A program made the position numbers and the translations under genes. Below the pieces are notes generated by a model that saw only the letters and a program-made list of their open reading frames with translations, was not told where the DNA came from and did no database searches. Shown here piece by piece: positions 2,817 to 61,376 of a DNA stretch of 64,000 nt; the first letter of the stretch is position 1; every line of letters begins with the position of its first letter. The stretch comes from a virus: IMG/VR virus record IMGVR_UViG_3300028854_000020, positions 1 to 64,000 of that record. One strand, given 5' to 3'.

Positions 2817-2845
2817 TTGACATTTAACCAAATTTTTGATATACT
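2817..2845 (+). promoter_or_regulatory. Sigma-70 promoter
   Basis: TTGACA at 2817-2822 and TATACT at 2840-2845, spacer 17, in the only real gap before the ArgRS-like gene. Confidence 0.85.
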
Positions 2846-2872: not shown

Positions 2873-4030
2873 ATGAAACCAATGCCAGAGCATATCGGAG
2901 TCGGAATTACAGCAATGACTTCGTTGGAGTGCTTAGGCTCATTTAAACATGAATCTATAGGCATTTATCACAATTATTTTGTTACTGAAACTGCATGGGA
3001 CTGGCCCAGCAAACCTAAACCTTCTAACATTGTTTTAGATGGTTTCTCCCCTAATCTAAATAAAGAATTACACATCGGCCATTTAAAAAATTTGGTCATT
3101 GCTTCTGCTTTAACAAATATTACATCTGCTTCACCTGTTGCAATGTTAGGCGCAGCAAATGGAATAAACAATGGAGCGATGGAAGCATATAAAAAATGGT
3201 GTAATCTTGCAAACTACCATCCAAAAATTTATCTTGATATAGAACTCCCTGCGCCATCAGAAAATCTTTATGATGGAGTTTCTGAATATGCAGGTTGTAA
3301 AATGTTCAACAATGTTGTAATTTACAAGTCTACAGGCGCAAGCACATATGCAGCGCACGATTTAAGTTTTGCTAAACTTGTTGCGCCCGATTTTTATTTG
3401 ACTGGACAAGAACAAAAAGAACATTTTTCTAATTTGGGTTTGGGAACGAAGCATCTTCCAATGGGTTTGGTTCTTGGTAAAGATGGTTCTAAAATGAAAA
3501 GTACAATTAAAAAAGATGGAGATATTGCTAACGGAATTACTGCGCAAGAATTAATTGATGAAATTTCAAAAATAATTAAACCAACACCCGATCCAATGGC
3601 TTTAATTTGGAATGTACTGGCATGGCAGTTTAATTCTGCTTCCGTGAGCAAAAATACTATTTTGGATATAGAAAATTGGTGTAAAATTACAAGTCCGGGT
3701 ATTTATATTAGTTATACTTTTGCTAAAATTCAAAAAGCATTGAGTTTTGCAAAAATAATGGGAGATAAAAATCAATTAAGTTTGGATGATGCTAAACTTT
3801 GTGGGTTTGCAAGTTATTTTCATTATTATTTGAATAAAGCAATTGAAAATAATGAACCATATTATATTGCACAATTTGCATTGTCATTATCAAAAAAATT
3901 ATCTGAGATATATGATAAAAAATCTATTAAGGATGGCACTGCTAGTTTTATATTTTCTGTGAACTATTCGCTAGACATATTGAAGCAATGTATGATATTA
4001 TTAGGAATGAATGTTTTGAAAGAGATTTGA
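2873..4030 (+). CDS. Arginyl-tRNA synthetase-like protein (shortened class I synthetase)
   Basis: 385 residues against about 550-600 for bacterial ArgRS. The HIGH signature is seen as SPNLNKELHIGHLKN (HIGH at 67-70). An ArgRS-like STYAAHDLSFAKL is at about 157-169, a KMSKS-like GSKMKS at 205-210, and a C-terminal SPGIYISYTFAKIQKAL (274-290) matches the start of the ArgRS anticodon-binding DALR region. The N-terminal tRNA-binding domain and part of the C-terminal domain are missing or reduced. It has its own promoter and RBS AAGGAG, and is followed at once by an RNA ligase gene. It may charge phage tRNA-Arg (two are encoded here) or have another role such as tRNA binding. Confidence 0.8.
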   Translation: MKPMPEHIGVGITAMTSLECLGSFKHESIGIYHNYFVTETAWDWPSKPKPSNIVLDGFSPNLNKELHIGHLKNLVIASALTNITSASPVAMLGAANGINNGAMEAYKKWCNLANYHPKIYLDIELPAPSENLYDGVSEYAGCKMFNNVVIYKSTGASTYAAHDLSFAKLVAPDFYLTGQEQKEHFSNLGLGTKHLPMGLVLGKDGSKMKSTIKKDGDIANGITAQELIDEISKIIKPTPDPMALIWNVLAWQFNSASVSKNTILDIENWCKITSPGIYISYTFAKIQKALSFAKIMGDKNQLSLDDAKLCGFASYFHYYLNKAIENNEPYYIAQFALSLSKKLSEIYDKKSIKDGTASFIFSVNYSLDILKQCMILLGMNVLKEI

Positions 4031-4031
4031 T

Positions 4032-4682
4032 ATGAAACAACCAATTCACAAATTATATAAATATCCACGCTCTCTGCATTTACCCAATAGCCAAGGTATT
4101 ACATCCGATGATAAGGTTTTGTCGCAAGACATTGTTGATTCGTGGAATTGGGAGGTTGTTATTTCAGAAAAAAGAGACGGAGAAAATTTTTCTTTATATT
4201 CAGATTATTTCCATGCTCGTAGTTTGAATTTTGAACCTCATCCAAGCAGAAATAGAATTGCCGCGCTTCATTCTCGGATAGCTTATCAAATACCGACTAA
4301 TTTTAGAATCTGCGGAGAAAATTTAACAGCAGTTCATTCAATAAAATATTGCAATCTCAAAGAAATTTTTGAGGTCTTTGGTATATGGAATGAGGAACAA
4401 TGTTTATCTTGGGATGATACAGTTATTTTTGCTAATCTTTTAAATTTGCCAACTGTTCCTATTTTATATCAAGGAATTTGGGGAGAATCTGTAGCAAAAT
4501 CAATTGTAGAAACATTAGATACATCAAAACAAGAAGGTTTTGTTGTTAGACCAACCCGCGCATTTTATTTAAATGAGTTTAATAGTGTAGTTGGGAAATG
4601 GGTAAGACATAATCATGTAATATCAACGTCACATTGGATTCGCCAAAAAATAGAATACAATGAGCTATCTTCTGTGCTATAA
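4032..4682 (+). CDS. RNA ligase (Rnl2/DraRnl-like nucleotidyltransferase fold)
   Basis: 216 residues, a minimal ATP-dependent RNA ligase. Nucleotidyltransferase motifs appear in order: motif I SEKRDGEN with the adenylated Lys47, FRICGENL near 91-98, motif III EIFEVFGIW, motif IV EGFVVRP and motif V GKWVR. It would seal RNA nicks. There is only 1 nt between the ArgRS-like stop and this ATG, so the two are translationally coupled; this suggests joint work on cleaved tRNA. A second, Rnl1-type ligase is at 31540. Confidence 0.85.
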   Translation: MKQPIHKLYKYPRSLHLPNSQGITSDDKVLSQDIVDSWNWEVVISEKRDGENFSLYSDYFHARSLNFEPHPSRNRIAALHSRIAYQIPTNFRICGENLTAVHSIKYCNLKEIFEVFGIWNEEQCLSWDDTVIFANLLNLPTVPILYQGIWGESVAKSIVETLDTSKQEGFVVRPTRAFYLNEFNSVVGKWVRHNHVISTSHWIRQKIEYNELSSVL

Positions 4683-4729
4683 TAGTTACATCATGAACGA
4701 AATTAAGAGCACGTTTAATAAGTCAAAAG

Positions 4730-4738
4730 CATAAATAC
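4730..4738 (+). promoter_or_regulatory. Late-promoter-like motif CATAAATAC
   Basis: CATAAATAC in the gap upstream of the ribonucleotide reductase gene. The same word occurs at 19252. A hairpin with a T-run lies between it and the reductase, so a role in nrdJ expression is uncertain. Confidence 0.25.
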
Positions 4739-4754
4739 AGAGTAACACCATCGC

Positions 4755-4780
4755 GCCTGATTCAAAGTCAGGCCATTTTT
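4755..4780 (+). terminator. Rho-independent terminator
   Basis: GCCTGA (4755-4760), 7-nt loop and TCAGGC (4768-4773), then CATTTTT. It ends the ArgRS-like/RNA ligase unit before the reductase gene. Confidence 0.7.
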
Positions 4781-4806
4781 ATCTTATATTACAGAGGAAT
4801 ATTAAA

Positions 4807-7395
4807 TTGAATAATTCAGCAACAGATAAGTTACCACGCCCATCACAAACAACTATTTTTCAAGACCCATTTAGCGAGGAAGTTTGGAAAAAAACATATA
4901 AAGATTATAAAGATACTGACATTAATGATACATTTTGGAGAGTATCCGATGCTATTGCAAGTGTTGAAATTACAGAAGCATTACGAAATGAATGGCGCAT
5001 CAAATTTTATGAAATGATGACAGATTTTTGTGTATTGCCCGGTGGGAGAATTCTTGCCAATGCTGGAACAGAATTTAAAGGAACAACACTTATTAATTGT
5101 TTTACAGACCCAAAAGTAAAATATGATGAAGATAGTATGGTTGGTATTTTAGAATCATTAAGATATCAATCATTAACATTAAAATCAGAAGGTGGTTGGG
5201 GGAAAAATTTCTCGGCACTTAGACCACGTGGCGGATTTATTAAAGGTATTGGTGTTGAAACACCCGGCGCAGTAAAATTTATGGAATTGTTCGACAAGAG
5301 TAGTGAAATTATTACTGCTGGTTCTGGAACAAAATCTTTAAATAAAAAATCTAAAGGTAAAATTCGCAAAGGGGCCATGATGGGAATTTTAGATTGTTCC
5401 CACCCAGATATTATAGAATTTATTACAGCTAAACAAACTCCCGGAAGACTTTCAAAATTTAATGTTAGTATAAATTGCACAGATGCGTTTATGGATAAAG
5501 TTTTGATCGTTGAAAAACTTAAAAAAGAAAAAGCACCACAAGAAGTAATTGATTTAATAACTTGGGATTTAGTATTTCCAGATACAACACATACTGCGTA
5601 TAAATCTGAATGGCATGGAATTTTAAATGATTGGGTATCCAGTGGATATCCCATAAAAATTTATAAAACAGTAAAAGTTGAATGGTTATGGAATTTAATA
5701 ACACAAAGCACATACAATAGAAATGAACCGGGTATTTTATTCTTAGAAAGAGCTAATAAATTTCATACTTTAAATTATCATGATACTATTATTGCAAGTA
5801 ATCCATGTGCAGAGCAGATTATGTCATATGCAGGAACTTGTACATTGGGAACATTGAATTTAACTCAGTTTGTAAATAAAAATAGAACAGGTTTTGATAT
5901 AGAAAAAATTAAAAAATATACTTCATATTTAGTTCGTTTTCTTGATAATGTAGATTCTTATAGTGATGCTCCATTACCCGAATATATTGAATCCTTGCGA
6001 AAAAAGAGGCGTATTGGATGTGGTTTAATGGGATGGGGAAGTGCATTGTTTATGTTAAAGGTTAGATTTTCTTCATCAGAAGCAAAGAAGTTACAATATG
6101 AAGTTTTAAAAGCATTTACTTTATCTGGTGTTGAAGCATCAATTGATCTTGCAGAAGAAAAGGGGATGTTTGAATTATGTGATCCTGAAAAGCATTATTT
6201 AAGTCCGTATTGGGATAACATTGATTTACCAATAACATTAAGAAATAGAATGCGCAAACATGGTATTCGTAATAGTTCATTATTCTCAATGCAACCGAAT
6301 GGAAACAGTTCAGTTTTAGCAAATATTATCAGTGGTGGCATTGAACCAATTTTCCTACCAGAATATATTAGAACTGTTATTGTTGGTGAAACACCAGATC
6401 ATATTATTGATGTAGCACCCAATTGGAATCATGGAGATTTTGTTGAAACTGATATGTTTAAATTTATTCAAGAAGGGGATGAACAAATTCTTAAAGGAAC
6501 TGATAAATTTGGAATAGTTTATAAAATTGATAAAAATCGTGGAATGACAAAAGAAGTATTGTGTCAAGATTATGGTGTTAGATATTTAAGTGCAATAGGA
6601 GAATGGAATCCTATTGCAGATTGGGCAATAACTACAGAAAAATTATCAGTTGATGAACATATTTCCGATCTTAAAGGATTTGCAAAAGAAGTAGATTCTG
6701 CTTGCAGTAAAACTATTAATATTCCAAATGATTATTCTTTTGAAGATTTTAAAAATATATATTTAGATGCTTATAATACTGGTTATATAAAAGGATGCAC
6801 AACTTATAGAGCAGCTACAATGTCTTCTGTATTATCTGCTGTTGCCAGCAAAGATGTTGATGAAGAAGTTATTTTAACTGATATTCAAATGCCAGATTCT
6901 AGTCTTGCAGAAGTTAAAGTTTTACGAGATTATGAGGGCGGAAGTAGTAGAAAATGGTATGTAACTCTCACTCTTAACGACAATAAGGCTCCAATTGCAT
7001 TATTTGTTCAAACTAACGCTATGGAAAAATCAGTTACTACCAATGATGCTGTAGAAAAATTGATTGCTTTGGCAAGAATTAAAGGAATTCCTGAAAAATT
7101 TGTTCAAGGAACTATTGATAAATCATTAAATGATAATAATAGCACAAAGATTGCACGAACAATTGGTTTACTGCTTCGTCACGGCGTTCATATTAAAAAT
7201 GTTGTGGCAGAAATTGATAAGGTTGAAGGTGTTACCTTTTCCAGCTTTTTATTTCATATTAAAAAGCTACTTTGTGGATTTGTTAATGATGGAACAAAAA
7301 TTGAGGGTATAAAATGTTCGGAGTGCTCCGGTCAGTTAATTTATGAGAGTGGATGCCAACGATGTGTAAATTGTAGTAATTCAAAATGTGGATAA
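4807..7395 (+). CDS. nrdJ: Adenosylcobalamin-dependent (class II) ribonucleotide reductase
   Basis: 862 residues with a TTG start behind RBS AGAGGAAT. It reduces ribonucleotides to deoxyribonucleotides using a B12 radical, independent of oxygen and of a NrdB subunit. Visible landmarks are Cys98 (LINCFTDP, redox pair partner), NPCAEQ at 332-337 with the radical Cys334, Cys345 in GTCTLGTLNL, a C-terminal KGCTTYR segment, and a terminal zinc-ribbon-like cysteine cluster (CSEC, CQRC, CSNSKC) typical of NrdJ. The family usually reads NPCGEQ; here Ala replaces Gly. It depends on host cobalamin. A palindromic terminator follows. Confidence 0.92.
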   Translation: MNNSATDKLPRPSQTTIFQDPFSEEVWKKTYKDYKDTDINDTFWRVSDAIASVEITEALRNEWRIKFYEMMTDFCVLPGGRILANAGTEFKGTTLINCFTDPKVKYDEDSMVGILESLRYQSLTLKSEGGWGKNFSALRPRGGFIKGIGVETPGAVKFMELFDKSSEIITAGSGTKSLNKKSKGKIRKGAMMGILDCSHPDIIEFITAKQTPGRLSKFNVSINCTDAFMDKVLIVEKLKKEKAPQEVIDLITWDLVFPDTTHTAYKSEWHGILNDWVSSGYPIKIYKTVKVEWLWNLITQSTYNRNEPGILFLERANKFHTLNYHDTIIASNPCAEQIMSYAGTCTLGTLNLTQFVNKNRTGFDIEKIKKYTSYLVRFLDNVDSYSDAPLPEYIESLRKKRRIGCGLMGWGSALFMLKVRFSSSEAKKLQYEVLKAFTLSGVEASIDLAEEKGMFELCDPEKHYLSPYWDNIDLPITLRNRMRKHGIRNSSLFSMQPNGNSSVLANIISGGIEPIFLPEYIRTVIVGETPDHIIDVAPNWNHGDFVETDMFKFIQEGDEQILKGTDKFGIVYKIDKNRGMTKEVLCQDYGVRYLSAIGEWNPIADWAITTEKLSVDEHISDLKGFAKEVDSACSKTINIPNDYSFEDFKNIYLDAYNTGYIKGCTTYRAATMSSVLSAVASKDVDEEVILTDIQMPDSSLAEVKVLRDYEGGSSRKWYVTLTLNDNKAPIALFVQTNAMEKSVTTNDAVEKLIALARIKGIPEKFVQGTIDKSLNDNNSTKIARTIGLLLRHGVHIKNVVAEIDKVEGVTFSSFLFHIKKLLCGFVNDGTKIEGIKCSECSGQLIYESGCQRCVNCSNSKCG

Positions 7396-7717: not shown

Positions 7718-7936
7718 TCACTGTTCTAACAAATGCACCATTACGTAATGCGAGTTTATTTTGGCCATTGGTGTTGTTTTGGGTAATATGGTGTTATATT
7801 TATATTTACCACATTTTTCGAGTGATATTGTTATATTATTAATTTTAGCAACCCGGAACAAATCTAGATAATTGCTTAATATTGATATAACAACATAATC
7901 ATCGATATTTATCTCTTGTCCAATAATATCTTTCAT
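7718..7936 (-). CDS. Small GDYV-domain protein with LLEQ tail
   Basis: 72 residues: N-terminal MKDIIGQEINIDDYVV and C-terminal YVMVHLLEQ. It is a close relative of the 9297 protein and a member of the large family of tiny proteins described in the findings (SH3-like GDxV start, xxMLxxLE end). RBS GGAG precedes ATG. It overlaps the upstream gene by 4 bp (ATGA), so it is translationally coupled. Confidence 0.65.
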   Translation of the reverse strand: MKDIIGQEINIDDYVVISILSNYLDLFRVAKINNITISLEKCGKYKYNTILPKTTPMAKINSHYVMVHLLEQ

Positions 7937-8881: not shown

Positions 8882-8910
8882 AGTATACCAAAATAAAGGT
8901 ATATTGTCAA
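8882..8910 (-). promoter_or_regulatory. Sigma-70 promoter (minus strand)
   Basis: On the minus strand, TTGACA (8910-8905), spacer 17, TATACT (8887-8882). The leader that follows reads AATCTTGTAGTCAAGAAA, the same leader seen after plus promoters at 30753, 45673, 46038 and 58837. It drives the operon 8853-7459. Confidence 0.85.
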
Positions 8911-8947
8911 GCACAAAATAATAGTTGTAAAAATATTATAAACAGGT

Positions 8948-8976
8948 TTGACAAACAAACCAAAGTTTGATATACT
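8948..8976 (+). promoter_or_regulatory. Sigma-70 promoter, leaderless type
   Basis: TTGACA 8948-8953, spacer 17 containing ACCAAAGTTTGA, TATACT 8971-8976. An ATG lies exactly 6 nt after the -10 box, at 8983. Confidence 0.85.
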
Positions 8977-9005
8977 ATATTTATGAATGAAAAGATTACA
9001 ATTCG

Positions 9006-9245
9006 ATGTCGGAATCGGAGCAATTGGCTGCTGTTAATCGATATGGTTATGCAATTTATTATATCAAAAACCCAAGCGAAGCCGTGCAATTGGCTGCGGT
9101 TAAACAAAATGTTTGGGCCATTGATGCCATCAAAAATCCAAGTGAAACTGTTCAATTGGCTGCTGTTAATAAAGATAGTCGGGTCATTAATTACATCAAG
9201 AATTCAACAATATCTGTTCAAATGTTGGCAAAATTTTTATCTTGA
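9006..9245 (+). CDS. DUF4116-like 22-residue repeat protein (3 repeats), N-terminus frameshifted
   Basis: 79 residues from ATG 9006: three repeats of the pattern VQLAAVNxxxxAIxYIKNPSEx, then the conserved end ISVQMLAKFLS. Paralogues are at 30470, 33143 and 58290. In the 58290 copy translation starts at the leaderless ATG with MNEKDYNLMSES. Here the matching ATG is at 8983, but one A is missing from the A-run at about 8989-8992, so that ATG reads out of frame and only the internal ATG 9006 gives the repeat frame. The TGA stop lies inside the TTGACA of the next promoter. Function is unknown; the repeat probably forms helical pairs. Confidence 0.65.
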   Translation: MSESEQLAAVNRYGYAIYYIKNPSEAVQLAAVKQNVWAIDAIKNPSETVQLAAVNKDSRVINYIKNSTISVQMLAKFLS

Positions 9246-9296: not shown

Positions 9297-9584
9297 TTGA
9301 AAGATGTGATTGATCAAGAATTGTCCATCGGTGATTATGTCACTGGTATATGGGCAAATGCCGAGCTTGAATTATTTGAAATAGTGGATTTACAAGAGAA
9401 TGGAAAATTTACAAGTAATTCACGAATCAAACGTGGCGCTGTTGTTGTTTTAAAGCGTTTATTTAACAGTGATGTTTCGGAAGATCGTCAAAATAAACCA
9501 GTTAAGAAACTTAATTCTCAGGTTACCAAAGTTCCAGAGCAAGCGGTTCGTGATTACGTTATGATGTATAAATTGGAAAATTGA
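9297..9584 (+). CDS. Small GDYV-domain protein with YKLEN tail
   Basis: 95 residues with a TTG start; AAGGA lies 7 nt upstream. The start MKDVIDQELSIGDYVTG matches the 7718 minus-strand protein, and the end is YVMMYKLEN. It is a member of the LE-tail family. The middle is basic. Function is unknown; the GDYV start suggests a small SH3-like barrel. Confidence 0.6.
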   Translation: MKDVIDQELSIGDYVTGIWANAELELFEIVDLQENGKFTSNSRIKRGAVVVLKRLFNSDVSEDRQNKPVKKLNSQVTKVPEQAVRDYVMMYKLEN

Positions 9585-14418: not shown

Positions 14419-14868
14419 ATGTCAAATTCTACAAAGGTTTCTATATTTTTTGCAACTTGTATGGCTTTAATTTGTATAAATTTTACCATAGGCTGGTGTA
14501 TACTTAATTATCATCCACACATGTTACAACCAATTAATTCCGAAGTAATTACTACAAAATATAATAAATTTGTAACAGATGCAAAAGGAACAAAAGTTGT
14601 AATATATCATTCACCCTTGGTAAAAGATATGCCAGAAAACGAAAGATTTAAAAATACGATTTTCTTTGTTCAAGATGGTAGTGCAGTTTTACTTAATCTT
14701 GATTCTCTAAACTATAACATAGGCGAAGATGTCGTATGGAAATCAAATGGAAAATGGTATGGTGTATTAAAAGACAAAAATATTGATCCAGCAAGTATCA
14801 GATTTATTAATTATAACACACCAGAACAATGTCATTGTGTTCCTATTACTTTAATGGATGAAAAATAA
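14419..14868 (+). CDS. Membrane-anchored hypothetical protein
   Basis: 149 residues. One N-terminal membrane segment (about 7-29), then an outside domain rich in beta-strand with a C-terminal CHC pair. The start directly abuts the previous stop. Function is unknown. Confidence 0.55.
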   Translation: MSNSTKVSIFFATCMALICINFTIGWCILNYHPHMLQPINSEVITTKYNKFVTDAKGTKVVIYHSPLVKDMPENERFKNTIFFVQDGSAVLLNLDSLNYNIGEDVVWKSNGKWYGVLKDKNIDPASIRFINYNTPEQCHCVPITLMDEK

Positions 14869-14878
14869 AAAGGATAAA

Positions 14879-15208
14879 ATGTTTCTATGGCTCGATGATA
14901 TACGTGATCCCGCTCAATGTGGAGCAATTGGTGTAACTTGGGTTAAAACATACGATGAAGCAGTTGATTTGTTGAAAACAGGAAATGTAATAATTGCAGA
15001 TTTAGATCATGATCTTAATATTCAACAAACTTTAGGATTGACAGATGGCAACAAAACAGGATATGATGTGATTGTATGGATGGAAGAACATAATATATGG
15101 CCGGAAAAAGTTTTGATTCATAGTCAAAATCCATCTGGAAAATATAAAATGCTTCAAGCAGTTCAACGACATTATGGAAAGCTATTTCAGCCTCCATTTC
15201 GCGTGTAA
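14879..15208 (+). CDS. Cyclic-phosphate processing receiver-like (cREC) protein
   Basis: 109 residues from ATG 14879, which has RBS AAAAAGGA; the upstream ATG 14858 lies inside the previous gene. FLWLDDIRDP at the start, IIADLDHDL in the middle and LIHSQNPSGKYKM near the end are the signature blocks of the cREC receiver-like family. That family is linked to RNA repair with ligases and predicted to act on 2',3'-cyclic phosphate ends. It fits the two RNA ligases here. Activity is inferred from the family only. Confidence 0.7.
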   Translation: MFLWLDDIRDPAQCGAIGVTWVKTYDEAVDLLKTGNVIIADLDHDLNIQQTLGLTDGNKTGYDVIVWMEEHNIWPEKVLIHSQNPSGKYKMLQAVQRHYGKLFQPPFRV

Positions 15209-16891: not shown

Positions 16892-17332
16892 ATGGAACCG
16901 ATTCTAGGATTTTTTGATAAGTATAGATTTTTAAGCAATTTTCATGAACATCCCGCTGTTGTAATTTATATTGATGATTTAACTGGTGGAAGACTTCCGT
17001 GTAAAAATGTTGAAGCTGCATTTCAAGCATCTAAAACATTAAATGCTCTTGAAAGATTGACTGTTTCTTTATCGCAAACTCCAAACGAAGCTAAGAAATT
17101 GGGGCGTCAAGTATCAATGCGTTCTGATTGGGAAAATATAAAATTTGATGTAATGTTAGAATTGTTAAATCAAAAATTTTCCTATCCTTATTATCGCGAT
17201 CTTCTTAAAGCTACTGGTGATGCTTATCTAGAAGAAACAAATCCATGGAACGATAAAATTTGGGGTGTTTGTAATGGTGTTGGAATGAATTGGCTTGGAA
17301 AACTTTTAATGAAGGTTCGTGAAGGTTTATAA
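16892..17332 (+). CDS. NADAR/YbiA-like protein
   Basis: 146 residues, full domain. GFFDKYRFLSNFHEHPAVV start, KNVEAAFQASKT, NEAKKLGRQVSMRSDWE, LLKATGDAYLEE, and DKIWGVCNGVGMNWLGKLLM are the consecutive NADAR blocks. Family members are N-glycosidases acting on ADP-ribose-linked or flavin-pathway N-ribosides; some remove ADP-ribose from nucleobases. In a phage it might counter ADP-ribosylating defence, which is inference. RBS AGAAAGGAAA. Confidence 0.85.
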   Translation: MEPILGFFDKYRFLSNFHEHPAVVIYIDDLTGGRLPCKNVEAAFQASKTLNALERLTVSLSQTPNEAKKLGRQVSMRSDWENIKFDVMLELLNQKFSYPYYRDLLKATGDAYLEETNPWNDKIWGVCNGVGMNWLGKLLMKVREGL

Positions 17333-23085: not shown

Positions 23086-23159
23086 GCCCCTATAGCTCAG
23101 TGGACAAGAGCAAACGGTTTCTACCCGTAAGGTCGGGAGTTCAAATCTCTCTAGGGGTT
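23086..23159 (+). tRNA. tRNA-Arg (anticodon UCU)
   Basis: 74 nt. Acceptor GCCCCTA/TAGGGGT (G1-U72), D stem GCTC/GAGC, anticodon stem closed by ACGG/CCGT with loop TTTCTAC, T stem GGGAG/CTCTC with loop TTCAAAT. CCA encoded at 23160-23162. It reads AGA, a codon frequent in this AT-rich genome. Confidence 0.85.
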
Positions 23160-23172
23160 CCAAAAATTTTAT

Positions 23173-23245
23173 GGACCCATTGGCAATGGATAGTCAACTT
23201 GAATTCGAATCAAGTTTAGTGTAGGTTCGAGTCCTACTGGGTCTG
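23173..23245 (+). tRNA. tRNA-Arg (anticodon UCG)
   Basis: 73 nt. Acceptor GGACCCA/TGGGTCT, anticodon stem CTTGA/TCAAG with loop ATTCGAA (A at 32), T stem GTAGG/CCTAC with loop TTCGAGT. CCA encoded at 23246-23248. Its 3' end overlaps the stop region of the minus-strand nuclease gene. Confidence 0.8.
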
Positions 23246-24037
23246 CCATTTTAAAACAGTATTTTTGATTTCTTCTCTATTACCAACAATAAGTGGAAAA
23301 AGTTGAATCAATTGTTTAATTTTGTCTGCATCCTCCCTCATTTTCATTGGGTTTTTAACATCAAGAAACTTATTAAAAGATGGCAAATAAAAATCGGGAA
23401 GATATGTTCTCCATTTATTGTTAGTAGTATCAAACCAATGTAATCTTTTAGATGGACGCAACCAAATAATGTTTTTTTCATCTAACCATTTTGCGATAAA
23501 TAATTCCCAAGAAGATTGTAAACTTGTTTCTGTATTGTCATTTTTATTAAAATAAGAAATTCTAATTTTGGCACATTTATTTTTGGAACGAATTGAATCA
23601 CGACATTCAATCGAACAACATTTTTGATCATAAAATTCTCTTTTAAAAGTAATATGACAATGATGACATTCATAAAATGGTTTTGATCGTGAAGTAATAT
23701 TTTTATTTTGTATACCTTTTCGCGTTCCTTTTGGTAAACATATTTTTCCTTCTTTATAAAGAAATTTCATTTTTTGAGAAAATTTTTCTTTAACATCTCT
23801 TGGCCACGAACCACGTTTAATATTTCTAAATGAAGCAGCACAAGATTGATTACAAAAATTATTATAATGTTTTTCATATGGTATTGTTAAATTACAATGT
23901 TTACATAATTTAGGATTTTGGTTATATTTGTCTATATATTCTTTCGATCTGAATATATTGGCACAATTAGAAGAACAGAATTTTATTCGTTTATCAGTTC
24001 TATTAAAAATCATTTGACATTGTTTGCAATTTTTCAT
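23234..24037 (-). CDS. Zinc-finger homing endonuclease, Vsr/PD-(D/E)XK-like
   Basis: 267 residues. Three Cys-rich fingers (CKQC...CSSNC, CKHC...CNQSC, CHHC...CSIEC) occupy residues 1-145. Then comes SSWELFIAKWLDEKNI and WRTYLPDFYLP...FLDVKNP, a Vsr-like nuclease core (D in LPDF, D-x-K in DVKNP). This layout is typical of free-standing phage homing nucleases. Its last codons lie inside the 3' end of tRNA-Arg(UCG) on the other strand, so the tRNA acceptor end encodes its C-terminus. Likely a mobile insertion. Confidence 0.75.
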   Translation of the reverse strand: MKNCKQCQMIFNRTDKRIKFCSSNCANIFRSKEYIDKYNQNPKLCKHCNLTIPYEKHYNNFCNQSCAASFRNIKRGSWPRDVKEKFSQKMKFLYKEGKICLPKGTRKGIQNKNITSRSKPFYECHHCHITFKREFYDQKCCSIECRDSIRSKNKCAKIRISYFNKNDNTETSLQSSWELFIAKWLDEKNIIWLRPSKRLHWFDTTNNKWRTYLPDFYLPSFNKFLDVKNPMKMREDADKIKQLIQLFPLIVGNREEIKNTVLKWQTQ

Positions 24038-24101: not shown

Positions 24102-24875
24102 ATGCAATATATTATCCAAAATTCGGGTGTTACTTTTGCTTGTTTAGATAATAATGTTGCTCCATTAGTAAAAGCAATTGATGAGATTGGTGCAACAAGA
24201 ATTGCATGTGGTGTTATACCTTTTACTGATACTATTGTGGGTATTGACGATATTGATCCAACGATTCCAACTATGTTTTATGGTTCTACTCGGTTGGTTG
24301 AAATTGTATCCAAACTTTCATTTTCGCCCGGTGTGTGGTTTAAACCTGAATGGTTTGATCCTAAAAATTGGTGCGGAAAACGAAACGATCTTCTCAATGA
24401 AAATCAAACATATATGACTGTTGGAGAACTTAGAAAAAATTGGATCGACAAAGAATTTTTTGTAAAATCTTCCGATCCAAAAATTTTAACTGGAATGGTG
24501 CTTGAAAGTGATGATTATAAATGGTGGATTGAAGAATATTCCCATTTAAAAGATGAAGATAGGTTAGTGATTAGTCCAGTTCAAAACATTGTTCAAGAGT
24601 GGAGATTTTTTATAATCAATGGAGAAGTAGTTACAGGGTCTCAATATAAACACAATGGATTATTGAGAATACGAGAACCAATTTCTGATTATGTTTGGGA
24701 TAAAGCCAGAGAAATGTCTAGAGATTGGATGCCATCACAAAATATTGTGATGGATATTTGTAAACTTGAAAATGATGAATTCAAAGTTGTAGAGTTTAAT
24801 ACAATTTCATGTAGCGGTTTTTATGCAAGTCCTATAAAACCATTATTAGAGAAAATTTCATTTATATATGATTAA
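24102..24875 (+). CDS. ATP-grasp domain protein (R2K clade)
   Basis: 257 residues. DKEFFVKSSDPKILTGMVL (ATP-binding Lys), VQEWRFFIINGEVVTGSQYK, and VMDICKLENDEFKVVEFNTI (metal-binding E-x-N) are ATP-grasp blocks of the R2K (DUF4343-like) group found in phages. Such enzymes form amide or peptide-like bonds with ATP. Substrate is not deducible. RBS AAAAGAG; start ATG 24102. Confidence 0.75.
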   Translation: MQYIIQNSGVTFACLDNNVAPLVKAIDEIGATRIACGVIPFTDTIVGIDDIDPTIPTMFYGSTRLVEIVSKLSFSPGVWFKPEWFDPKNWCGKRNDLLNENQTYMTVGELRKNWIDKEFFVKSSDPKILTGMVLESDDYKWWIEEYSHLKDEDRLVISPVQNIVQEWRFFIINGEVVTGSQYKHNGLLRIREPISDYVWDKAREMSRDWMPSQNIVMDICKLENDEFKVVEFNTISCSGFYASPIKPLLEKISFIYD

Positions 24876-30469: not shown

Positions 30470-30733
30470 GTGAATGAGAAAAATTACAATTCAATGTCTG
30501 TATCGGGACATTTGTCTGCTGTTCAACAAGATGGTTATGCCATTCAATACATCAAGAATCCAAGTGAAGCTGTGCAATTGGCTGCTGTTAATAAAAATGG
30601 TTATGTCATTTATTATATTAAGAATCCAAGTGAAGCCGTGCAATTGTCTGCTGTTCAACAAGATAGTTCTGCCATCGATTATATTGAAAACCCAACAATA
30701 TCTGTTCAAATGATGGCAAAATTATTGTCTTGA
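30470..30733 (+). CDS. DUF4116-like 22-residue repeat protein (3 repeats)
   Basis: 87 residues, GTG start with no RBS, at the predicted transcription start. The N-terminus MNEKNYNSMSVSGHLS is homologous to the 58290 protein start. Three repeats VQLxAVxxxxxxIxYIxNPxxx, then ISVQMMAKLLS. TGA stop overlaps the TTGACA of the next promoter. Function unknown. Confidence 0.75.
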   Translation: MNEKNYNSMSVSGHLSAVQQDGYAIQYIKNPSEAVQLAAVNKNGYVIYYIKNPSEAVQLSAVQQDSSAIDYIENPTISVQMMAKLLS

Positions 30734-31539: not shown

Positions 31540-32661
31540 ATGACGTATTTAAATGACATTCTCGATATAAATTTTCTTGCTCAGTTGATCAAGGATGGAT
31601 ATATTTCACAAAAATTTCATAATGATTATCCTCTTGCTATATTAAATTATAGTAAATTGGCTCAGTTTGACGAAAAATTAGTTTGGAACAACGAAATGAA
31701 TTTGTCTCGTGGGTTGATTTACAATACTGACACGATGGAAGTTGTGGCCGTTCCTTTTCGTAAGTTTTGGAACATTTCAGACTCTCGGCATCCTGAAACT
31801 ATGCCTGAAAATCTTCCGAATGAAATTCCTTTGTTTTTGGAGAAGTTGGACGGTTCGCTTGGAATTTTGTTTGAATGGGATAACTTGAATCATGTAGCAA
31901 CTAGGGGTAGCTTTCATTCAGATCAAGCAGTTTGGGCAACTAACTGGCTTCGAACCACTCATCCTAATTTGCAATTGCCGAAGGAAGGCACGATACTTGC
32001 TGAAATTCTTTATAAACAAAACAAAATAGTAATTGATTATGATTTTGAAGGTCTTGTTGTTATTGGTGCAATCAATAAGGCAACTACAAAGGAAATGAAT
32101 CGTGACGATTTGAAGGTTTATTGCCGAGTGATGGAATTGAATATTGTTCAGGAGTATAAGAAATCTTTGAACACTTGTCTTTCTGAGGATGAAAAAAATC
32201 GGGAAGGATATGTTCTTACTTATCCGTCAACTGGTATAAAGGTTAAAGTTAAATTTGAAACTTATTGTCAGTTACATAAGATTTTGACAAATTTGAACGC
32301 ACATAGTATTTGGGAATTGCTGCGTGATGAAAAGTCTCAAACTATTTCTGATTGGTTGAAAGATGAAAATATGCCTGATACTTTTAAGAAGTGGGTTAAG
32401 ACGGTTTGGTTTTCATTAATCGGGAAATTTGAAAATATTTTAACGGAAGCAAATCATCGCTATGTTTCTCGTCCAATGACTGATCCATTTATGCCGTATA
32501 AGGAATCTCGTAAGATTATGGCACAATATTTCACTTTGGAAGAAAATCGTAAATATTCTGGTTTGTTGTTTGGTATGCTCGATAAGAAAAATATTGACAA
32601 ATCAATTTGGAAAATGATTGAACCTGCTGGAAGTGATGTATTTCTTGTGGACGGAGAGTAA
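31540..32661 (+). CDS. T4 Rnl1-type RNA ligase
   Basis: 373 residues, the same length as T4 RNA ligase 1. FLEKLDGSLGILF carries the adenylated Lys (KxDG motif I). REGYVLTYPSTGIKVKVKF covers motifs IV and V. MNLSRGLIYNTDTMEVVAVPF is the T4 Rnl1 N-terminal block. The C-terminal all-helical domain (about 250-373) is the tRNA-specificity domain in T4. It repairs tRNA cut by host anticodon nucleases. RBS AGAAAGAGG. Confidence 0.92.
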   Translation: MTYLNDILDINFLAQLIKDGYISQKFHNDYPLAILNYSKLAQFDEKLVWNNEMNLSRGLIYNTDTMEVVAVPFRKFWNISDSRHPETMPENLPNEIPLFLEKLDGSLGILFEWDNLNHVATRGSFHSDQAVWATNWLRTTHPNLQLPKEGTILAEILYKQNKIVIDYDFEGLVVIGAINKATTKEMNRDDLKVYCRVMELNIVQEYKKSLNTCLSEDEKNREGYVLTYPSTGIKVKVKFETYCQLHKILTNLNAHSIWELLRDEKSQTISDWLKDENMPDTFKKWVKTVWFSLIGKFENILTEANHRYVSRPMTDPFMPYKESRKIMAQYFTLEENRKYSGLLFGMLDKKNIDKSIWKMIEPAGSDVFLVDGE

Positions 32662-33120: not shown

Positions 33121-33142
33121 TATGTTTTTAAATTTGGAGATT

Positions 33143-33652
33143 ATGAAAACTTCTAAACAAGAACAACTCGAATCAGTGAATAGAAATGGATATAATATTG
33201 TAAATATTAAAAACCCAAGCGAAGATGTTCAACTGGCTGCTGTTCAACAAGATGCTCGTGCCATTTGTTACATCAAAAATCCAAGCGAAGCCATGCAATT
33301 GGCGGCTGTTAATCAAAATGGTTATGCCATTGAATATATCAAGAAACCAAGCGAAGCTGTGCAATTGGCTGCGGTTAATCAAGATGGTTATGCCATTAAA
33401 TATATCAAAAACCCAAGCGAAGATGTTCAATTGGCTGCGGTTAATCAAAATGGTCATGCCATTCGACGTATCAATAATCCAAGCGAAGATGTGCAATTGG
33501 CTGCGGTTAATGAAAATGGTAATGTCATTCGACGTATCAATAATCCAAGCGAAGATGTGCAATTGGCTGCGGTTAATCAAAATGGTCATGCCATTGAATA
33601 TATCAAAAACCCAACAATTTCTGTTCAAATGTTGGCCAAATTATTGTCTTGA
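33143..33652 (+). CDS. DUF4116-like 22-residue repeat protein (7 repeats)
   Basis: 169 residues from ATG 33143, which has GGAGA close upstream; ATG 33122 is also in frame. Seven repeats of 22 residues with consensus VQLAAVNQNGxAIxYIKNPSE, ending ISVQMLAKLLS. Two adjacent repeats (ending RRINNPSED) are almost identical in DNA, showing recent expansion. Unlike its paralogues it lacks the MNEKxYN start and no leaderless promoter is seen. Its stop codon lies in the next TTGACA. Confidence 0.75.
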   Translation: MKTSKQEQLESVNRNGYNIVNIKNPSEDVQLAAVQQDARAICYIKNPSEAMQLAAVNQNGYAIEYIKKPSEAVQLAAVNQDGYAIKYIKNPSEDVQLAAVNQNGHAIRRINNPSEDVQLAAVNENGNVIRRINNPSEDVQLAAVNQNGHAIEYIKNPTISVQMLAKLLS

Positions 33653-39506: not shown

Positions 39507-39557
39507 ATGCTCAGAAGTCGAAAGACTTTAATAATAGTGAGAGGAGACTAACTTTAT

Positions 39558-39815
39558 ATGTATTCGGACGCGGATTGCGATATTCCGCCGGTTCCACCAA
39601 AATATGATTTAATGTTAGACACGAAACGTCTATACGGGACCGACCAGTTTCGACGGGTATATTATAGGGAAACGTTACTATTCATGATGTGGTTCTCGCT
39701 TCATGTAAAACAGAGAGCACCATTTATAATTGCTGCTAACCGCATCAATGGCGTTAATGAAATTGCAACCTACAATGTAGTGCGCAATCAAGTTAACGTG
39801 CCAGTTCTAGCGTAA
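39558..39815 (+). CDS. Hypothetical protein
   Basis: 85 residues, acidic and Pro-rich start (DADCDIPPVPPKYD), then helical. RBS GAGAGGAG is 11 nt upstream. Codons differ from neighbours (more CG, e.g. GCG, CCG). Not recognised. Confidence 0.55.
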   Translation: MYSDADCDIPPVPPKYDLMLDTKRLYGTDQFRRVYYRETLLFMMWFSLHVKQRAPFIIAANRINGVNEIATYNVVRNQVNVPVLA

Positions 39816-43236: not shown

Positions 43237-43266
43237 AAAAGGCAGGAGTTAATCTCTTGCCTTTTT
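43237..43266 (+). terminator. Rho-independent terminator of the structured RNA
   Basis: AAAAGGCA-GGAG stem pairs with CTCT-TGCCTTTT, followed by T-run. It overlaps the -35 box of the nadA promoter. Confidence 0.85.
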
Positions 43267-43285
43267 GTGTATATTTTGTTATACT
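43257..43285 (+). promoter_or_regulatory. Sigma-70 promoter of nadA
   Basis: TTGCCT 43257-43262, spacer 17, TATACT 43280-43285; the RBS AGAGG and ATG 43302 follow. Confidence 0.65.
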
Positions 43286-43301
43286 TGAAATAGAGGTTTA
43301 T

Positions 43302-44390
43302 ATGGAAAACCAAATTTGTTCTCTTGAAAATTATCTACAGTTTCCTGATAATACAATGGATAGTAGAATTGCTATAGCAAGAAAAATACTTGGTGATTCT
43401 GTAGTAATTTTAGGTCACCATTATCAGCGTGACGAAGTTCTAAAATTTGCTGATTTTACAGGAGATAGTTTCAAACTTGCAAAAGATGGTGCAAAAACAA
43501 AGGCAAAATATATTATTTTCTGCGGAGTATATTTTATGGCCGAAACTGCGGATATTCTTGGCCACGATCAAATTGTTATTCTACCCGATTTGAATGCTGG
43601 TTGTTCGATGGCTGATATGGCTGAAATTTCTCAAGTAGAAGCATGTTGGGAAACTTTAGAAAAAATTGGAATAACAAATGATTTAATTCCAATTACTTAT
43701 ATGAATTCTACCGCTGCAATTAAAGCATTTGTTGGAGAATATGGAGGATTAGTTTGCACTTCTTCTAATGCCCAAAAAGCATTTGAATGGGCGTTTGCTC
43801 GTGGCAAAAGAATTTTGTTTCTTCCAGATCAGCATCTTGGTCGTAACACTGGTTATAATATGGGAATTGCATTAAACGAAATGATTGTATATGATCAATG
43901 GAGTATTCAGGGTGGACAAAGTAAAGCAAGTTATGATCAAAGTAAAATTATTTTATGGAAGGGTCATTGTGCAGTTCATCAGCGATTTTTACCAGATCAA
44001 GTTGATATAATTAGACAGAAGCATCCAGATATTCAAGTAATTGTTCATCCTGAATGTAGGTTAGAGGTTTGTCTAAAAGCTGATCAAATAGGTTCTACAG
44101 AACAGTTGATCAAAATTGTAGAAGAATCTCCTATTGGTTCTAAATTTGCAATTGGAACTGAAATTCATTTGGTTAATCGTCTTGCCAAAAAATATGCTCC
44201 GTTAGGGAAAACCATTTATAATCTTACTGATCAAGGATGTTTATGCACCACAATGTTTAGAATTACTCCACAACATTTAGCTTGGGCGCTGGAAAATTTA
44301 GTAAACGGAAATGTGGTCAATCAAATCAAGGTTCGTGATAATGTAAAGAAATGGGCCAGAGTTGCACTTGACAAAATGCTTATTTTATGA
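43302..44390 (+). CDS. nadA: Quinolinate synthase (NadA)
   Basis: 362 residues from ATG 43302. NadA condenses iminoaspartate with dihydroxyacetone phosphate to quinolinate in de novo NAD synthesis, using a 4Fe-4S cluster. Family blocks: GHHYQRDEV, FCGVYFMAETA, LPDLNAGCSMADM, TYMNSTAAIKA, VCTSSNA, LPDQHLGRNTG, WKGHCAVHQRF, VHPECRLEV, GTEIHLVNRL. The three cluster Cys are in FCGV, VCTS and near the end in QGCLCTTM. Complete and probably active. It needs host NadB and NadC. Rare in phages. Confidence 0.93.
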   Translation: MENQICSLENYLQFPDNTMDSRIAIARKILGDSVVILGHHYQRDEVLKFADFTGDSFKLAKDGAKTKAKYIIFCGVYFMAETADILGHDQIVILPDLNAGCSMADMAEISQVEACWETLEKIGITNDLIPITYMNSTAAIKAFVGEYGGLVCTSSNAQKAFEWAFARGKRILFLPDQHLGRNTGYNMGIALNEMIVYDQWSIQGGQSKASYDQSKIILWKGHCAVHQRFLPDQVDIIRQKHPDIQVIVHPECRLEVCLKADQIGSTEQLIKIVEESPIGSKFAIGTEIHLVNRLAKKYAPLGKTIYNLTDQGCLCTTMFRITPQHLAWALENLVNGNVVNQIKVRDNVKKWARVALDKMLIL

Positions 44391-51761: not shown

Positions 51762-51782
51762 AATAAAGGAGAGCTACTCAAA

Positions 51783-52922: not shown

Positions 52923-53407
52923 ATTATAATGATGAAATCGTTGCAATAAATTATATTGGTATCGAGGAAACCATTGATATTAATACAAATGGAAATAGAT
53001 TATTTTGGTCAAATGGAATTCTTACGCATAATAGTTCATTTGACGAAACTGAATTTACTGGTGCATCTATTGCTGGTGGTTTAAGTAAATTGAATACTGC
53101 CGATATTCTATTTGGTATTTTTACAAGTCGTATGATGAAAGAGCGTGGAGCAATCCAACTTCAATTTATGAAAACTCGTAATAGTGGTGGAGTTGATAGT
53201 AAAGTTGATTTAGATTTTGATGTTAATTCATTACGTATTACTGATTCTTCAAAACCAACAGATCAAAATTCAGCAATGACCGGTAGTAATGTTTTAGCTA
53301 AAATTAAAAACAGACAAAAAACTGACGAAGTAACAATTGGTGGAGTAACAGATAATAGAAAAGATTTATTAAAGTCTTTGTTGGGGAATATAAAAGCAAA
53401 CGGATAA
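52898..53407 (+). CDS. C-intein fused to C-part of the replicative helicase
   Basis: 169 residues: C-terminal split intein 1-45 (MCETSEILDYNDEIV, block F ETIDINTNGNRLF, block G NGILTHN) and helicase 46-169 starting at Ser46 (SSFDETEFTGASIAGG). Start MCE matches known gp41-8 C-inteins. Trans-splicing would give a 460-residue helicase, close to T4 gp41 size. RBS GAAGGAG inside the nuclease gene. Confidence 0.92.
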   Translation: MCETSEILDYNDEIVAINYIGIEETIDINTNGNRLFWSNGILTHNSSFDETEFTGASIAGGLSKLNTADILFGIFTSRMMKERGAIQLQFMKTRNSGGVDSKVDLDFDVNSLRITDSSKPTDQNSAMTGSNVLAKIKNRQKTDEVTIGGVTDNRKDLLKSLLGNIKANG

Positions 53408-54243: not shown

Positions 54244-54272
54244 TTGACATTTAACCACTATTTTGGTATACT
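54244..54272 (+). promoter_or_regulatory. Sigma-70 promoter, near-leaderless
   Basis: TTGACA 54244-54249, spacer 17, TATACT 54267-54272; ATG 54281 lies 8 nt after the -10 box with no RBS. Confidence 0.85.
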
Positions 54273-54280
54273 GGAACTGT

Positions 54281-58245: not shown

Positions 58246-58254
58246 AATAAGATG

Positions 58255-58283: not shown

Positions 58284-58289
58284 AGATTT

Positions 58290-59559: not shown

Positions 59560-59568
59560 ATTTTATTG

Positions 59569-59597
59569 TTGACTTTTAATTTTAATTTTGGTATACT
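59569..59597 (+). promoter_or_regulatory. Sigma-70 promoter
   Basis: TTGACT 59569-59574, spacer 17, TATACT 59592-59597, for the CCA-adding enzyme gene. Confidence 0.82.
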
Positions 59598-59616
59598 TTT
59601 AATAGTGAGGGAAGAG

Positions 59617-60948
59617 ATGACAACTCGTGAGAATGCAAATTTCGTGATGGAGAAACTTGAAAATGCTGGATTTAAAGCATTTTTAGTTGGTGGCGCAGTG
59701 AGAAATTTATTGTTGGGATTGAATCCTCATGATCTGGACCTCGCAACCAGCGCAAATCCAACTCAAGTTGCAACGTTGTTCCCAAATAGCAAATTTGTAG
59801 GTGAAAATTTCGGTGTATCTTTGGTTAATATCGAAGATGATCAGTTTGAAGTTGCTACTTTTCGTCTTGATGCAGCGTTTACTGCAACTTCTGATGGTCG
59901 GCACCCCGATGAAGTAAAATTTACCACTTCTGCCGAAGAAGATTGCCAACGAAGAGATTTTACGTGCAATGCATTATTTATGGATAGGCATGGCAAAGTA
60001 TTTGATTTTGTTGATGGTGTTGCAGATATCAATAATAAAGTTTTGCGATGTGTTGGCAATCCACTTGATCGTTTTCGTGAGGATAGTTTGCGAATGCTTC
60101 GTGCTGTAAGATTTTGTGCTTGTCTTGATTTTACAATGGATAAGGAAACAAAGGTCGCGGTTGTTGCTTTGGCGCATACAGTTAAAAATCTCCCCGCAGA
60201 GCGCGTTGCCAGCGAACTTAGCAGAATGTTGACAAGTGGACACGCCGATGTTGCCTTTGATCTGTTGCTGGAAACTGGTTTGGCTGCTGTTGTTATTCCG
60301 GAACTTTGTGACTTTGTTGGTTGTGAGCATAATTCCAATTTTCATCCAGAGGGAGACGTTGCTAATCATGTTCGTTTGCTGCTTGCTGGTTTGGAGAAGG
60401 GTTGTAGTTTGACTCTTGCTCTCAGCGTACTTTTGCATGATGTTGCGAAACCAAAGACTCGTCGTTTGAATAAGGATGGAAAGACACAGTTTCTTGGTCA
60501 CGAAACAGTTGGTGCAGCTATGGCCGAAGATATCTTGCATCGGTTGAAGTTTAGTAATGACGTAATTAAGACTGTTGTTAGTCATGTAAGGAACCACATG
60601 AAGTTTTTCTGCACTCGACAGATGAAGCGTAGCACTCTTATGAGGTTTTTGCGCACGGATAATTTTCAGGAACTTTTGGCACTTGGTAAGTTGGATGTTG
60701 CTGCAAGCAATAAGGATTTCAGCGACGTTGATTTTGTTGAGAGGTTCTTGAAGGAAAACGCCGATGAATTGAAGGCGGATCGTCTTGTTAACGGTGATGA
60801 TTTGGTTGCTATGGGTTTTGTTCCCGGCCCCAATTTCAAGGTATTGCTGGAACAGGTAGAGACGGCTCAGTTTGAAGGCAAGTTTACAACTCGCGAAGGG
60901 GCGCTGAATTTCCTTCGGAATAAAGCGCCCCGAAAAATGAAGGGATAG
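59617..60948 (+). CDS. cca: CCA-adding tRNA nucleotidyltransferase / poly(A) polymerase family
   Basis: 443 residues from ATG 59617 (RBS GAGGGAAGAG). FLVGGAVRNLLLGLNPHDLD (catalytic DxD, GGxVR), EDCQRRDFTCNALF, RFREDSLRMLRAVRF (nucleotide-selecting block), and an HD domain LSVLLHDVAKPKT. It adds or repairs the 3' CCA of tRNA. One tRNA here (Thr-CGU) lacks an encoded CCA. Codons are GC-richer than in the small genes. Bacterial-like full length suggests capture from a host. Confidence 0.9.
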   Translation: MTTRENANFVMEKLENAGFKAFLVGGAVRNLLLGLNPHDLDLATSANPTQVATLFPNSKFVGENFGVSLVNIEDDQFEVATFRLDAAFTATSDGRHPDEVKFTTSAEEDCQRRDFTCNALFMDRHGKVFDFVDGVADINNKVLRCVGNPLDRFREDSLRMLRAVRFCACLDFTMDKETKVAVVALAHTVKNLPAERVASELSRMLTSGHADVAFDLLLETGLAAVVIPELCDFVGCEHNSNFHPEGDVANHVRLLLAGLEKGCSLTLALSVLLHDVAKPKTRRLNKDGKTQFLGHETVGAAMAEDILHRLKFSNDVIKTVVSHVRNHMKFFCTRQMKRSTLMRFLRTDNFQELLALGKLDVAASNKDFSDVDFVERFLKENADELKADRLVNGDDLVAMGFVPGPNFKVLLEQVETAQFEGKFTTREGALNFLRNKAPRKMKG

Positions 60949-61372: not shown

Positions 61373-61376
61373 TAAT

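What the first reader, a model, noticed from the sequence alone, without database searches (positions are those of the whole stretch)
2873..4682. Shortened ArgRS-like protein coupled to an RNA ligase
A 385-residue ArgRS homologue with HIGH and KMSKS-like motifs lacks much of the normal protein and is co-translated with a minimal RNA ligase. The phage also has two tRNA-Arg genes. A ligase-synthetase pair could recognise, repair and recharge cleaved tRNA-Arg, a defence counter-strategy.
Basis: partly seen in the sequence, partly recalled or inferred. Interest (0 to 1): 0.72.

Follow-up and report, generated by a model that had tools for sequence, protein, structure and literature searches.

The report
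Compact phage arginyl-tRNA synthetase beside RNA ligase
This giant-phage fragment carries a naturally small enzyme that very probably loads arginine onto tRNA, next to an ordinary RNA-repair enzyme; both belong to known phage toolkits for keeping translation going, and the two are neighbours here but are not a fixed pair in other phages.

Summary
Window 2873-4030 encodes a 385-aa arginyl-tRNA synthetase (ArgRS) homologue and 4032-4682 a 216-aa Rnl2-type RNA ligase, one base apart, framed by promoter-like and terminator-like sites. The synthetase is not a decayed fragment. It is a divergent member of a compact (about 390 aa) ArgRS family found in about 20 huge-phage contigs: half an N-terminal domain, a trimmed catalytic domain and the DALR domain. 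HIGH, the lysine before it, the KMSKS-like lysine and most arginine-pocket residues are invariant. So is the Asn aligned with the one that reads A20 of tRNA-Arg, and phage tRNA-Arg genes at these loci carry A20 (12/12 scorable, against 7/87 other tRNAs). It most likely charges tRNA-Arg. The dedicated ligase-synthetase pair is not supported: 0 of 14 records with the closest ligase relatives encode the mini-ArgRS, and a syntenic relative lacks it. Only 2 of 17 other mini-ArgRS records have any RNA ligase within 1.5 kb, from different subfamilies (P about 0.03). The ligase fits the published jumbo-phage RNA-repair kit, also present here (RlaP, cREC, NADAR, CCA-adding enzyme, second ligase). Verdict: new compact variant of phage-encoded ArgRS; activity untested.

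The parts
2817..2845 (+). sigma-70-like promoter TTGACA-17-TATACT with TG extension
   Evidence: consensus scan, 11/12 matches; not tested
2873..4030 (+). compact arginyl-tRNA synthetase, 385 aa
   Evidence: PF00750 and PF05746 above cut-off; TIGR00456 2.8e-17; AlphaFold model pTM 0.81 whose best PDB match is ArgRS 1f7u, E 1.9e-16
2960..2974 (+). residues 30-34 GIYHN: remnant of the N-terminal Add1 domain end (cellular GPGF[IL]N); N34 aligned with the A20-reading Asn, Y32 with the A20-stacking aromatic
   Evidence: profile alignment; N 20/20 and Y/F 20/20 in the phage family
3047..3082 (+). residues 59-70 SPNLNKELHIGH: HIGH motif with preceding Lys64 and arginine-contacting Asn61
   Evidence: invariant in 20/20
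3347..3361 (+). residues 159-163 YAAHD: arginine pocket Tyr159 and Asp163
   Evidence: aligned to yeast ArgRS Y347 and D351; 20/20
3491..3505 (+). residues 207-211 KMKST: KMSKS-like loop
   Evidence: K207 20/20; KMSSS, KMSSR or KMRSR in relatives; cellular relatives L050, L052 and L053 have KMKSR
3713..4024 (+). DALR anticodon-binding domain (residues 281-384)
   Evidence: PF05746 22.8 bits, cut-off 22.3
4032..4682 (+). Rnl2-type RNA ligase, nucleotidyltransferase domain only, 216 aa; K47-R-D-G motif I, E96 motif III, E168-G169 motif IV, K189-W-V-R motif V
   Evidence: PF09414 1e-27; motifs conserved in relatives; model pTM 0.86, best PDB match T4 Rnl2, E 2e-6
4755..4773 (+). intrinsic-terminator-like hairpin
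   Evidence: consensus scan; not tested
23086..23162 (+). tRNA-Arg (TCT) with A20; plausible substrate
   Evidence: ARAGORN and Rfam
23173..23248 (+). tRNA-Arg (TCG) with A20; plausible substrate
   Evidence: ARAGORN and Rfam
59566..60948 (+). CCA-adding tRNA nucleotidyltransferase; same functional theme, not part of the operon
   Evidence: PF01743 2e-34

Best explanation
The first gene encodes a working, miniaturised arginyl-tRNA synthetase of a huge-phage family. It activates arginine with ATP through the HIGH and KMSKS-like motifs. It then charges A20-bearing tRNA-Arg (the phage's own two tRNAs and possibly the host's), holding the tRNA through a halved Add1 domain that keeps the A20-reading Asn and through the DALR domain, so that arginine codons are still translated late in infection. 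The second gene encodes an Rnl2-type RNA ligase that adenylates and joins 5'-phosphate/3'-OH RNA ends, most likely tRNAs cut by host defences, together with the end-healing enzymes encoded elsewhere on the contig. The two are co-transcribed here because tRNA-supply and RNA-repair genes are shuffled together in these genomes, not because they form an obligate pair. Shown by sequence: family identity, conserved catalytic and A20-reading residues, A20 in phage tRNA-Arg, lack of a fixed pairing. Inferred: enzymatic activity, substrate, timing, benefit to the phage.
For: ArgRS is the only family found in the PDB by profile search (best 2e-12) and the best by fold. Twenty phage-family sequences keep N61, K64, H67, H70, Y159, D163, Q181 and K207 without exception, and the Y/F32 and N34 positions. 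Tree: the phage sequences are separated from 26 cellular ArgRS with full support. Phage tRNA-Arg at these loci have A20 in 12/12 scorable cases against 7/87 for other tRNAs; A20 is the bacterial arginine identity element, read in E. coli by F36, Q40, A78, F82 and N84 (PMC8975779). tRNA-Arg genes lie within about 5.5 kb of the mini-ArgRS at several loci, 0.7 kb away in L001 and 0.3 kb away in L015. 13 of 21 mini-ArgRS records also encode other synthetases. The ligase keeps all NTase motifs and sits in a contig with RlaP, cREC, NADAR, a second RNA ligase and a CCA-adding enzyme, the kit described for jumbo phages (PMC7824862).
Against: No activity has been measured. The position aligned with yeast Glu294, which contacts the guanidinium (own knowledge), is Asp122 in the window clade and Ala in all 18 main-clade sequences, so arginine binding could be altered. 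About 40 residues of Add1 and roughly 70 or more residues of the catalytic domain are missing, so catalytic efficiency is unknown. Host ArgRS also reads A20, so A20 does not show which enzyme charges the tRNAs. The window's two tRNA-Arg genes are 19 kb from the synthetase, and no other synthetase of the families searched is in this 65-kb record.
Confidence: 0.72

Rival explanations
1. Dedicated tRNA-Arg restoration module: the ligase seals cleaved tRNA-Arg and the synthetase recognises and recharges it, as a counter-defence unit.
For: One-base junction and predicted two-gene transcription unit; two tRNA-Arg genes and an RNA-repair kit on the contig; RNA ligases also lie 0.16 kb upstream (L033) and 1.2 kb downstream (L019) of other mini-ArgRS genes, 2/17 against 0.28 expected, P 0.03.
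Against: The neighbouring ligases are of three different kinds (216 aa; 203 aa divergent; 362 aa with OB domain), in different order. 0/14 records with the closest ligase relatives have a mini-ArgRS. The syntenic locus L002 (ribonucleotide reductase 74%, ligase 58%) has peptide deformylase upstream of the ligase and no ArgRS in its record. L001 has the two genes 68 kb apart. The association P value fades to 0.09 at 3 kb.
Confidence: 0.1
2. The synthetase has lost or changed tRNA charging and uses the ArgRS fold for another purpose: binding or masking tRNA, making Arg-AMP for another acceptor, or charging a different amino acid.
For: Glu294-equivalent is Asp or Ala; large deletions; TIGR00456 score is far below the equivalog cut-off; aaRS paralogues with such roles exist (own knowledge: GluQ-RS, EpmA/PoxA, HisZ, MshC).
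Against: The other pocket residues and both signature motifs are conserved across the family; the DALR domain and the A20-reading Asn are kept, which a tRNA-independent enzyme would not need; genes often sit in tRNA arrays.
Confidence: 0.14
3. A recently truncated or decaying host ArgRS picked up by chance.
For: Shorter than cellular ArgRS; L001 appears to have lost the C-terminal end.
Against: The other complete members are 388-396 aa with collinear ends and an aligned C-terminus; one separate clade in the tree; open frame with conserved residues across sequences at 27-34% identity.
Confidence: 0.03

Closest known systems
Bacterial arginyl-tRNA synthetase (ArgRS, PF00750 + PF05746; PDB 1f7u, 4oby, 5yym)
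   Same: Class I fold, HIGH, Lys before HIGH, KMSKS-like loop, Asn/Tyr/Asp/Gln of the arginine pocket, DALR domain, GxxFxN-type end of Add1
   Different: 385 aa instead of about 545-597; Add1 about halved, catalytic insertions trimmed; Glu294-equivalent replaced by Asp (window clade) or Ala (main clade); 27-33% identity between the window protein and the main phage clade
A0A8D9CCB2, 'Arginine--tRNA ligase' of an uncultured marine phage (BFVD)
   Same: 385 aa, best structural match (E 4e-27, TM 0.73), already named ArgRS in the database
   Different: 27% identity; I found no report of it as a compact family and no functional data
Synthetases of huge phages (Al-Shayeb et al. 2020, PMC7162821)
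   Same: Huge phages carry up to 15 tRNA synthetases; the authors propose that these charge phage tRNAs, and note genes for ligating tRNAs cleaved by host defences
   Different: The main text does not mention arginyl or truncated synthetases; supplementary tables were not read
Phage Rnl2-type RNA ligases (PF09414, phrog_34045, phrog_24030; T4 Rnl2, PDB 2hvr)
   Same: All NTase motifs; stand-alone about 210-aa form also in XacN1 and Phosso; repair role as in PMC7824862
   Different: No T4-type C-terminal domain; lacks the HNH-like N-terminal extension of its closest relative in L002 (344 aa)
Jumbo-phage RNA-repair kit (Iyer et al. 2021, PMC7824862)
   Same: RlaP, cREC, NADAR, two RNA ligases and CCA-adding enzyme on this contig
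   Different: The passages read there do not describe an ArgRS-ligase unit

Membership tests
Arginyl-tRNA synthetase (class I) | HIGH motif and KMSKS-like motif | tested here: met
   HIGH 67-70, KMKS 207-210; K207 20/20
Arginyl-tRNA synthetase (class I) | Lysine upstream of HIGH | tested here: met
   K64 20/20
Arginyl-tRNA synthetase (class I) | Arginine-pocket residues (yeast N153, E294, Y347, D351, Q375; numbering from own knowledge) | tested here: inconclusive
   N61, Y159, D163, Q181 invariant; E294 position is Asp122 here and Ala in the main clade
Arginyl-tRNA synthetase (class I) | DALR anticodon-binding domain | tested here: met
   PF05746 above cut-off, residues 281-384
Arginyl-tRNA synthetase (class I) | N-terminal Add1 domain that reads A20 | tested here: inconclusive
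   Only about the last half remains; A20-reading Asn and stacking aromatic aligned and invariant
Arginyl-tRNA synthetase (class I) | Score above NCBIfam TIGR00456 equivalog cut-off | tested here: not met
   62.3 bits against 261.65; so filed as a homologue and variant of ArgRS, not as the equivalog
Arginyl-tRNA synthetase (class I) | Arginine attached to tRNA-Arg | not testable with these tools
   needs an enzyme assay
Rnl2-type RNA ligase (PF09414) | Nucleotidyltransferase motifs I (KxDG), III, IV (EGxV), V (K) | tested here: met
   K47-R-D-G, E96, E168-G169, K189
Rnl2-type RNA ligase (PF09414) | C-terminal domain of T4 Rnl2 | tested here: not met
   216 aa, NTase domain only; TM normalised to T4 Rnl2 0.39
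Dedicated ArgRS-ligase repair-and-recharge unit | Conserved adjacency of the same two families across phages | tested here: not met
   0/14 in the ligase direction; 2/17 with any RNA ligase within 1.5 kb, other subfamilies
Jumbo-phage RNA-repair kit | RNA ligase with RlaP, cREC and CCA-adding enzyme in one genome | tested here: met

The most novel reading that the evidence does not exclude
Huge phages carry a systematically miniaturised aminoacylation set (this ArgRS, plus 211-aa HisRS-like, 225-266-aa GlyRS-like and 230-290-aa GluRS-like proteins found here in the same genomes as other mini-ArgRS genes). In the window's lineage one member has been wired to an RNA ligase so that charging follows repair of cut tRNA-Arg.
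Probability: 0.1. Interest if true: 0.75.

Novelty: new variant of a known kind. Interest (0 to 1): 0.42.

Why it matters
A natural ArgRS of about 390 residues that keeps the A20-reading Asn shows how far a full aminoacylation module can shrink. Together with the still smaller HisRS-, GlyRS- and GluRS-like proteins in genomes that carry its relatives it gives a testable natural series of minimal synthetases, useful for questions on tRNA recognition and synthetase evolution and perhaps as compact tools. The ligase neighbour itself is ordinary for jumbo phages.

Tried and rejected
Dedicated pair: rejected as the main explanation by three surveys and by the syntenic locus L002. Decayed fragment: rejected by family length and conservation. 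Unusual KMSKS meaning loss of catalysis: rejected, since KMKS(R) is also found in cellular ArgRS L050, L052 and L053. phmmer and hmmsearch of the ligase against the PDB gave only chance-level hits; fold search worked. The single-sequence viral scan for the synthetase found one relative only; the alignment scan found 20. Paper searches for phage ArgRS, minimal phage synthetases or jumbo-phage anticodon-domain loss found nothing; the 2016 RNA-repair review was not held. 'phylum of' searches first failed on the handle format. The first regular expression for cellular ArgRS missed most sequences and was replaced by phmmer. The tree is weak on origin: the cellular sample comes from two phyla only and branches are long.

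Full report
OBSERVATION. A consensus promoter (TTGACA-17-TATACT, 11/12) lies 28 bases upstream of the first ATG and a terminator-like hairpin lies 73 bases after the second stop, so a two-gene transcript is likely but unproven. The window lies in a 64,932-base IMG/VR record, probably a fragment of a larger phage.

THE SYNTHETASE. Pfam gives the ArgRS catalytic domain and the DALR domain above cut-off. TIGR00456 matches at 2.8e-17 but far below its equivalog threshold. A profile scan of viral contigs found 20 related loci, several in records of 270-600 kb; two assembled huge-phage genomes (LR756504, 636 kb; LR745206, 635 kb) also have it, and so do two bacterial MAG contigs, whose genomes also have a full-length ArgRS. 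Apart from one truncated hit (L032) and L001, members are 388-396 aa once starts are aligned, so this is a family with its own standard size. The window protein and L001 (59% identical) form one clade, the other 18 sequences a second, and together they are separated from 26 cellular ArgRS with full support. The cellular sample comes from only two phyla, so this shows distinctness, not ancestry.

CATALYTIC COMPETENCE. In 20 sequences the HIGH histidines, Lys64 before HIGH, Asn61, Tyr159, Asp163, Gln181 and Lys207 never vary. Aligned with yeast ArgRS, N61, Y159, D163 and Q181 fall on N153, Y347, D351 and Q375 (residue roles from own knowledge of the yeast structure). The window's KMKST is not a defect: cellular ArgRS L050, L052 and L053 have KMKSR. 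One pocket residue does change: the position aligned with yeast Glu294 is Asp122 here and Ala in the whole main clade. That is the main reason for caution about amino-acid specificity, more for the main clade than for the window. The AlphaFold model (pLDDT 82.8, pTM 0.81) has ArgRS as its 20 best PDB matches, best 1f7u at 1.9e-16, and its best viral match is a 385-aa protein already named arginine-tRNA ligase from an uncultured marine phage.

WHAT IS MISSING AND WHAT IS KEPT FOR tRNA. The deletions are about half of Add1 (the A20-reading Asn sits at residue 34 in the window and at about 79-91 in cells) and pieces of the catalytic domain (global profile alignment). The end of Add1, GPGF[IL]N in cells, is kept as Gx[YF][TH]N: Y/F and N in 20/20. 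In E. coli F82 stacks on A20 and N84 contacts it (PMC8975779); that these are the F and N of the GPGFxN motif is my inference from their spacing. Fitting this, phage tRNA-Arg genes in these loci have A directly after G18G19 in 12/12 scorable cases, other tRNAs in 7/87. This is consistent with arginylation by the phage enzyme, but host ArgRS needs A20 too.

GENOMIC SETTING OF THE SYNTHETASE. In several records it lies in a tRNA array near tRNA-Arg (L001, L012/L015, L013, L017, L022/L023) and, in one record or another, near ThrRS, AsnRS, GluRS, TyrRS, peptidyl-tRNA hydrolase, RlaP, PhoH or polynucleotide kinase. Thirteen of 21 mini-ArgRS records carry other synthetases, some reduced to about the catalytic core (211-aa HisRS-like, 225-266-aa GlyRS-like, 230-290-aa GluRS-like). 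Some of these records are near-duplicates of each other (L012 and L015; L028 and L029). The window's record has none of the synthetase families searched, but it is a fragment.

THE LIGASE. It is a PF09414 nucleotidyltransferase with motifs I, III, IV and V intact and T4 Rnl2 as best fold match. Its size is normal for stand-alone members (XacN1 216 aa, Phosso 209 aa). It fits the jumbo-phage RNA-repair kit of PMC7824862, of which this contig also has RlaP, cREC, NADAR, a second RNA ligase and a CCA-adding enzyme.

IS THE PAIR REAL? (a) From the ligase side: of 14 records holding its closest relatives, including four complete jumbo phages, none has the mini-ArgRS. (b) From the synthetase side: 11 of 23 other records searched also have this ligase type, at about 11 kb or more wherever the distance was worked out. 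(c) Any PF09414 or PF09511 ligase: 2 of 17 other non-redundant records have one within 1.5 kb (L033 0.16 kb upstream, 362 aa with OB domain; L019 1.2 kb downstream, 203 aa divergent), against 0.28 expected by random placement, P 0.03, fading to 0.09 at 3 kb. (d) Synteny: L002 has a 58% identical ligase followed, one gene later, by a 74% identical ribonucleotide reductase, as in the window, but the gene before the ligase is a peptide deformylase and no ArgRS of this family is found in its 70-kb record. So the synthetase is an interchangeable neighbour of a ligase-reductase locus. A mild clustering of tRNA-supply and RNA-repair genes is real or nearly so; a dedicated unit is not supported.

CONCLUSION. 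Most likely a working compact ArgRS and a standard repair ligase, both serving to keep tRNAs usable in infected cells, side by side by gene shuffling. New as a compact variant of phage-encoded ArgRS; not a new counter-defence system. Activity remains to be measured.

Noticed in passing
L071, L075 (HisRS-like, 211 aa); L072, L073, L074, L079 (GlyRS-like, 225-266 aa); L076, L077, L078 (GluRS-like, 230-290 aa): Catalytic-core-sized synthetase homologues in the same huge-phage records as other mini-ArgRS genes; possibly the more novel finding. L071, L072 and L077 were checked against NCBIfam: best matches hisS, glycine-tRNA ligase and gltX, all below equivalog cut-offs.
   Followed up: partly
window 50484-53407: DnaB helicase gene split in two by a split intein (N-half ends QFNR|CQTLDSE..., C-half begins ...ILTHN|SSFDE) with a free-standing ORF (51783-52922) carrying a weak MTES_1575/Vsr-type endonuclease match between: resembles the known fractured-gene arrangement.
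   Followed up: partly
window 39533-39773: Permuted (two-piece) tmRNA, Rfam RF04321, 63 bits.
   Followed up: no
window 14858-15208, 16892-17332, 31540-32661, 54263-55303, 59566-60948: RNA-repair and NAD-related set: cREC, NADAR, T4 Rnl1-like RNA ligase, RlaP, CCA-adding enzyme.
   Followed up: partly
window 43257-44390; 626-1102; 24102-24875: Quinolinate synthase NadA, nucleoside deoxyribosyltransferase-like protein and an R2K ATP-grasp protein in a phage.
   Followed up: no
L009, about 4370-6490: RNA ligase gene that appears interrupted by an intein directly at the catalytic motif I (KYDGEN|C... ILVHN|C), in two ORFs.
   Followed up: no
L001 7040-7110: Closest relative of the window synthetase ends about 45 residues early; the DALR C-terminus is missing or frame-shifted.
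   Followed up: partly
window 30470-30733, 33122-33652 (+); antisense frames at 57939-58793 and 8907-9155: Repeated segments of the type 'DGYAIQYIKNPSEAVQLAAV' in several proteins.
   Followed up: no
window 60951-63562 and 7718-7936, 9297-9584: Run of small, apparently paralogous proteins with a '(K)IGDYV'-like motif.
   Followed up: no
L020 2066-2908, L021 7022-7876, L027 8123-8962: Metallo-beta-lactamase-fold protein, related to RNase Z or anti-Pycsar Apyc1, downstream of the mini-ArgRS in one sub-clade (L021 copy checked).
   Followed up: partly
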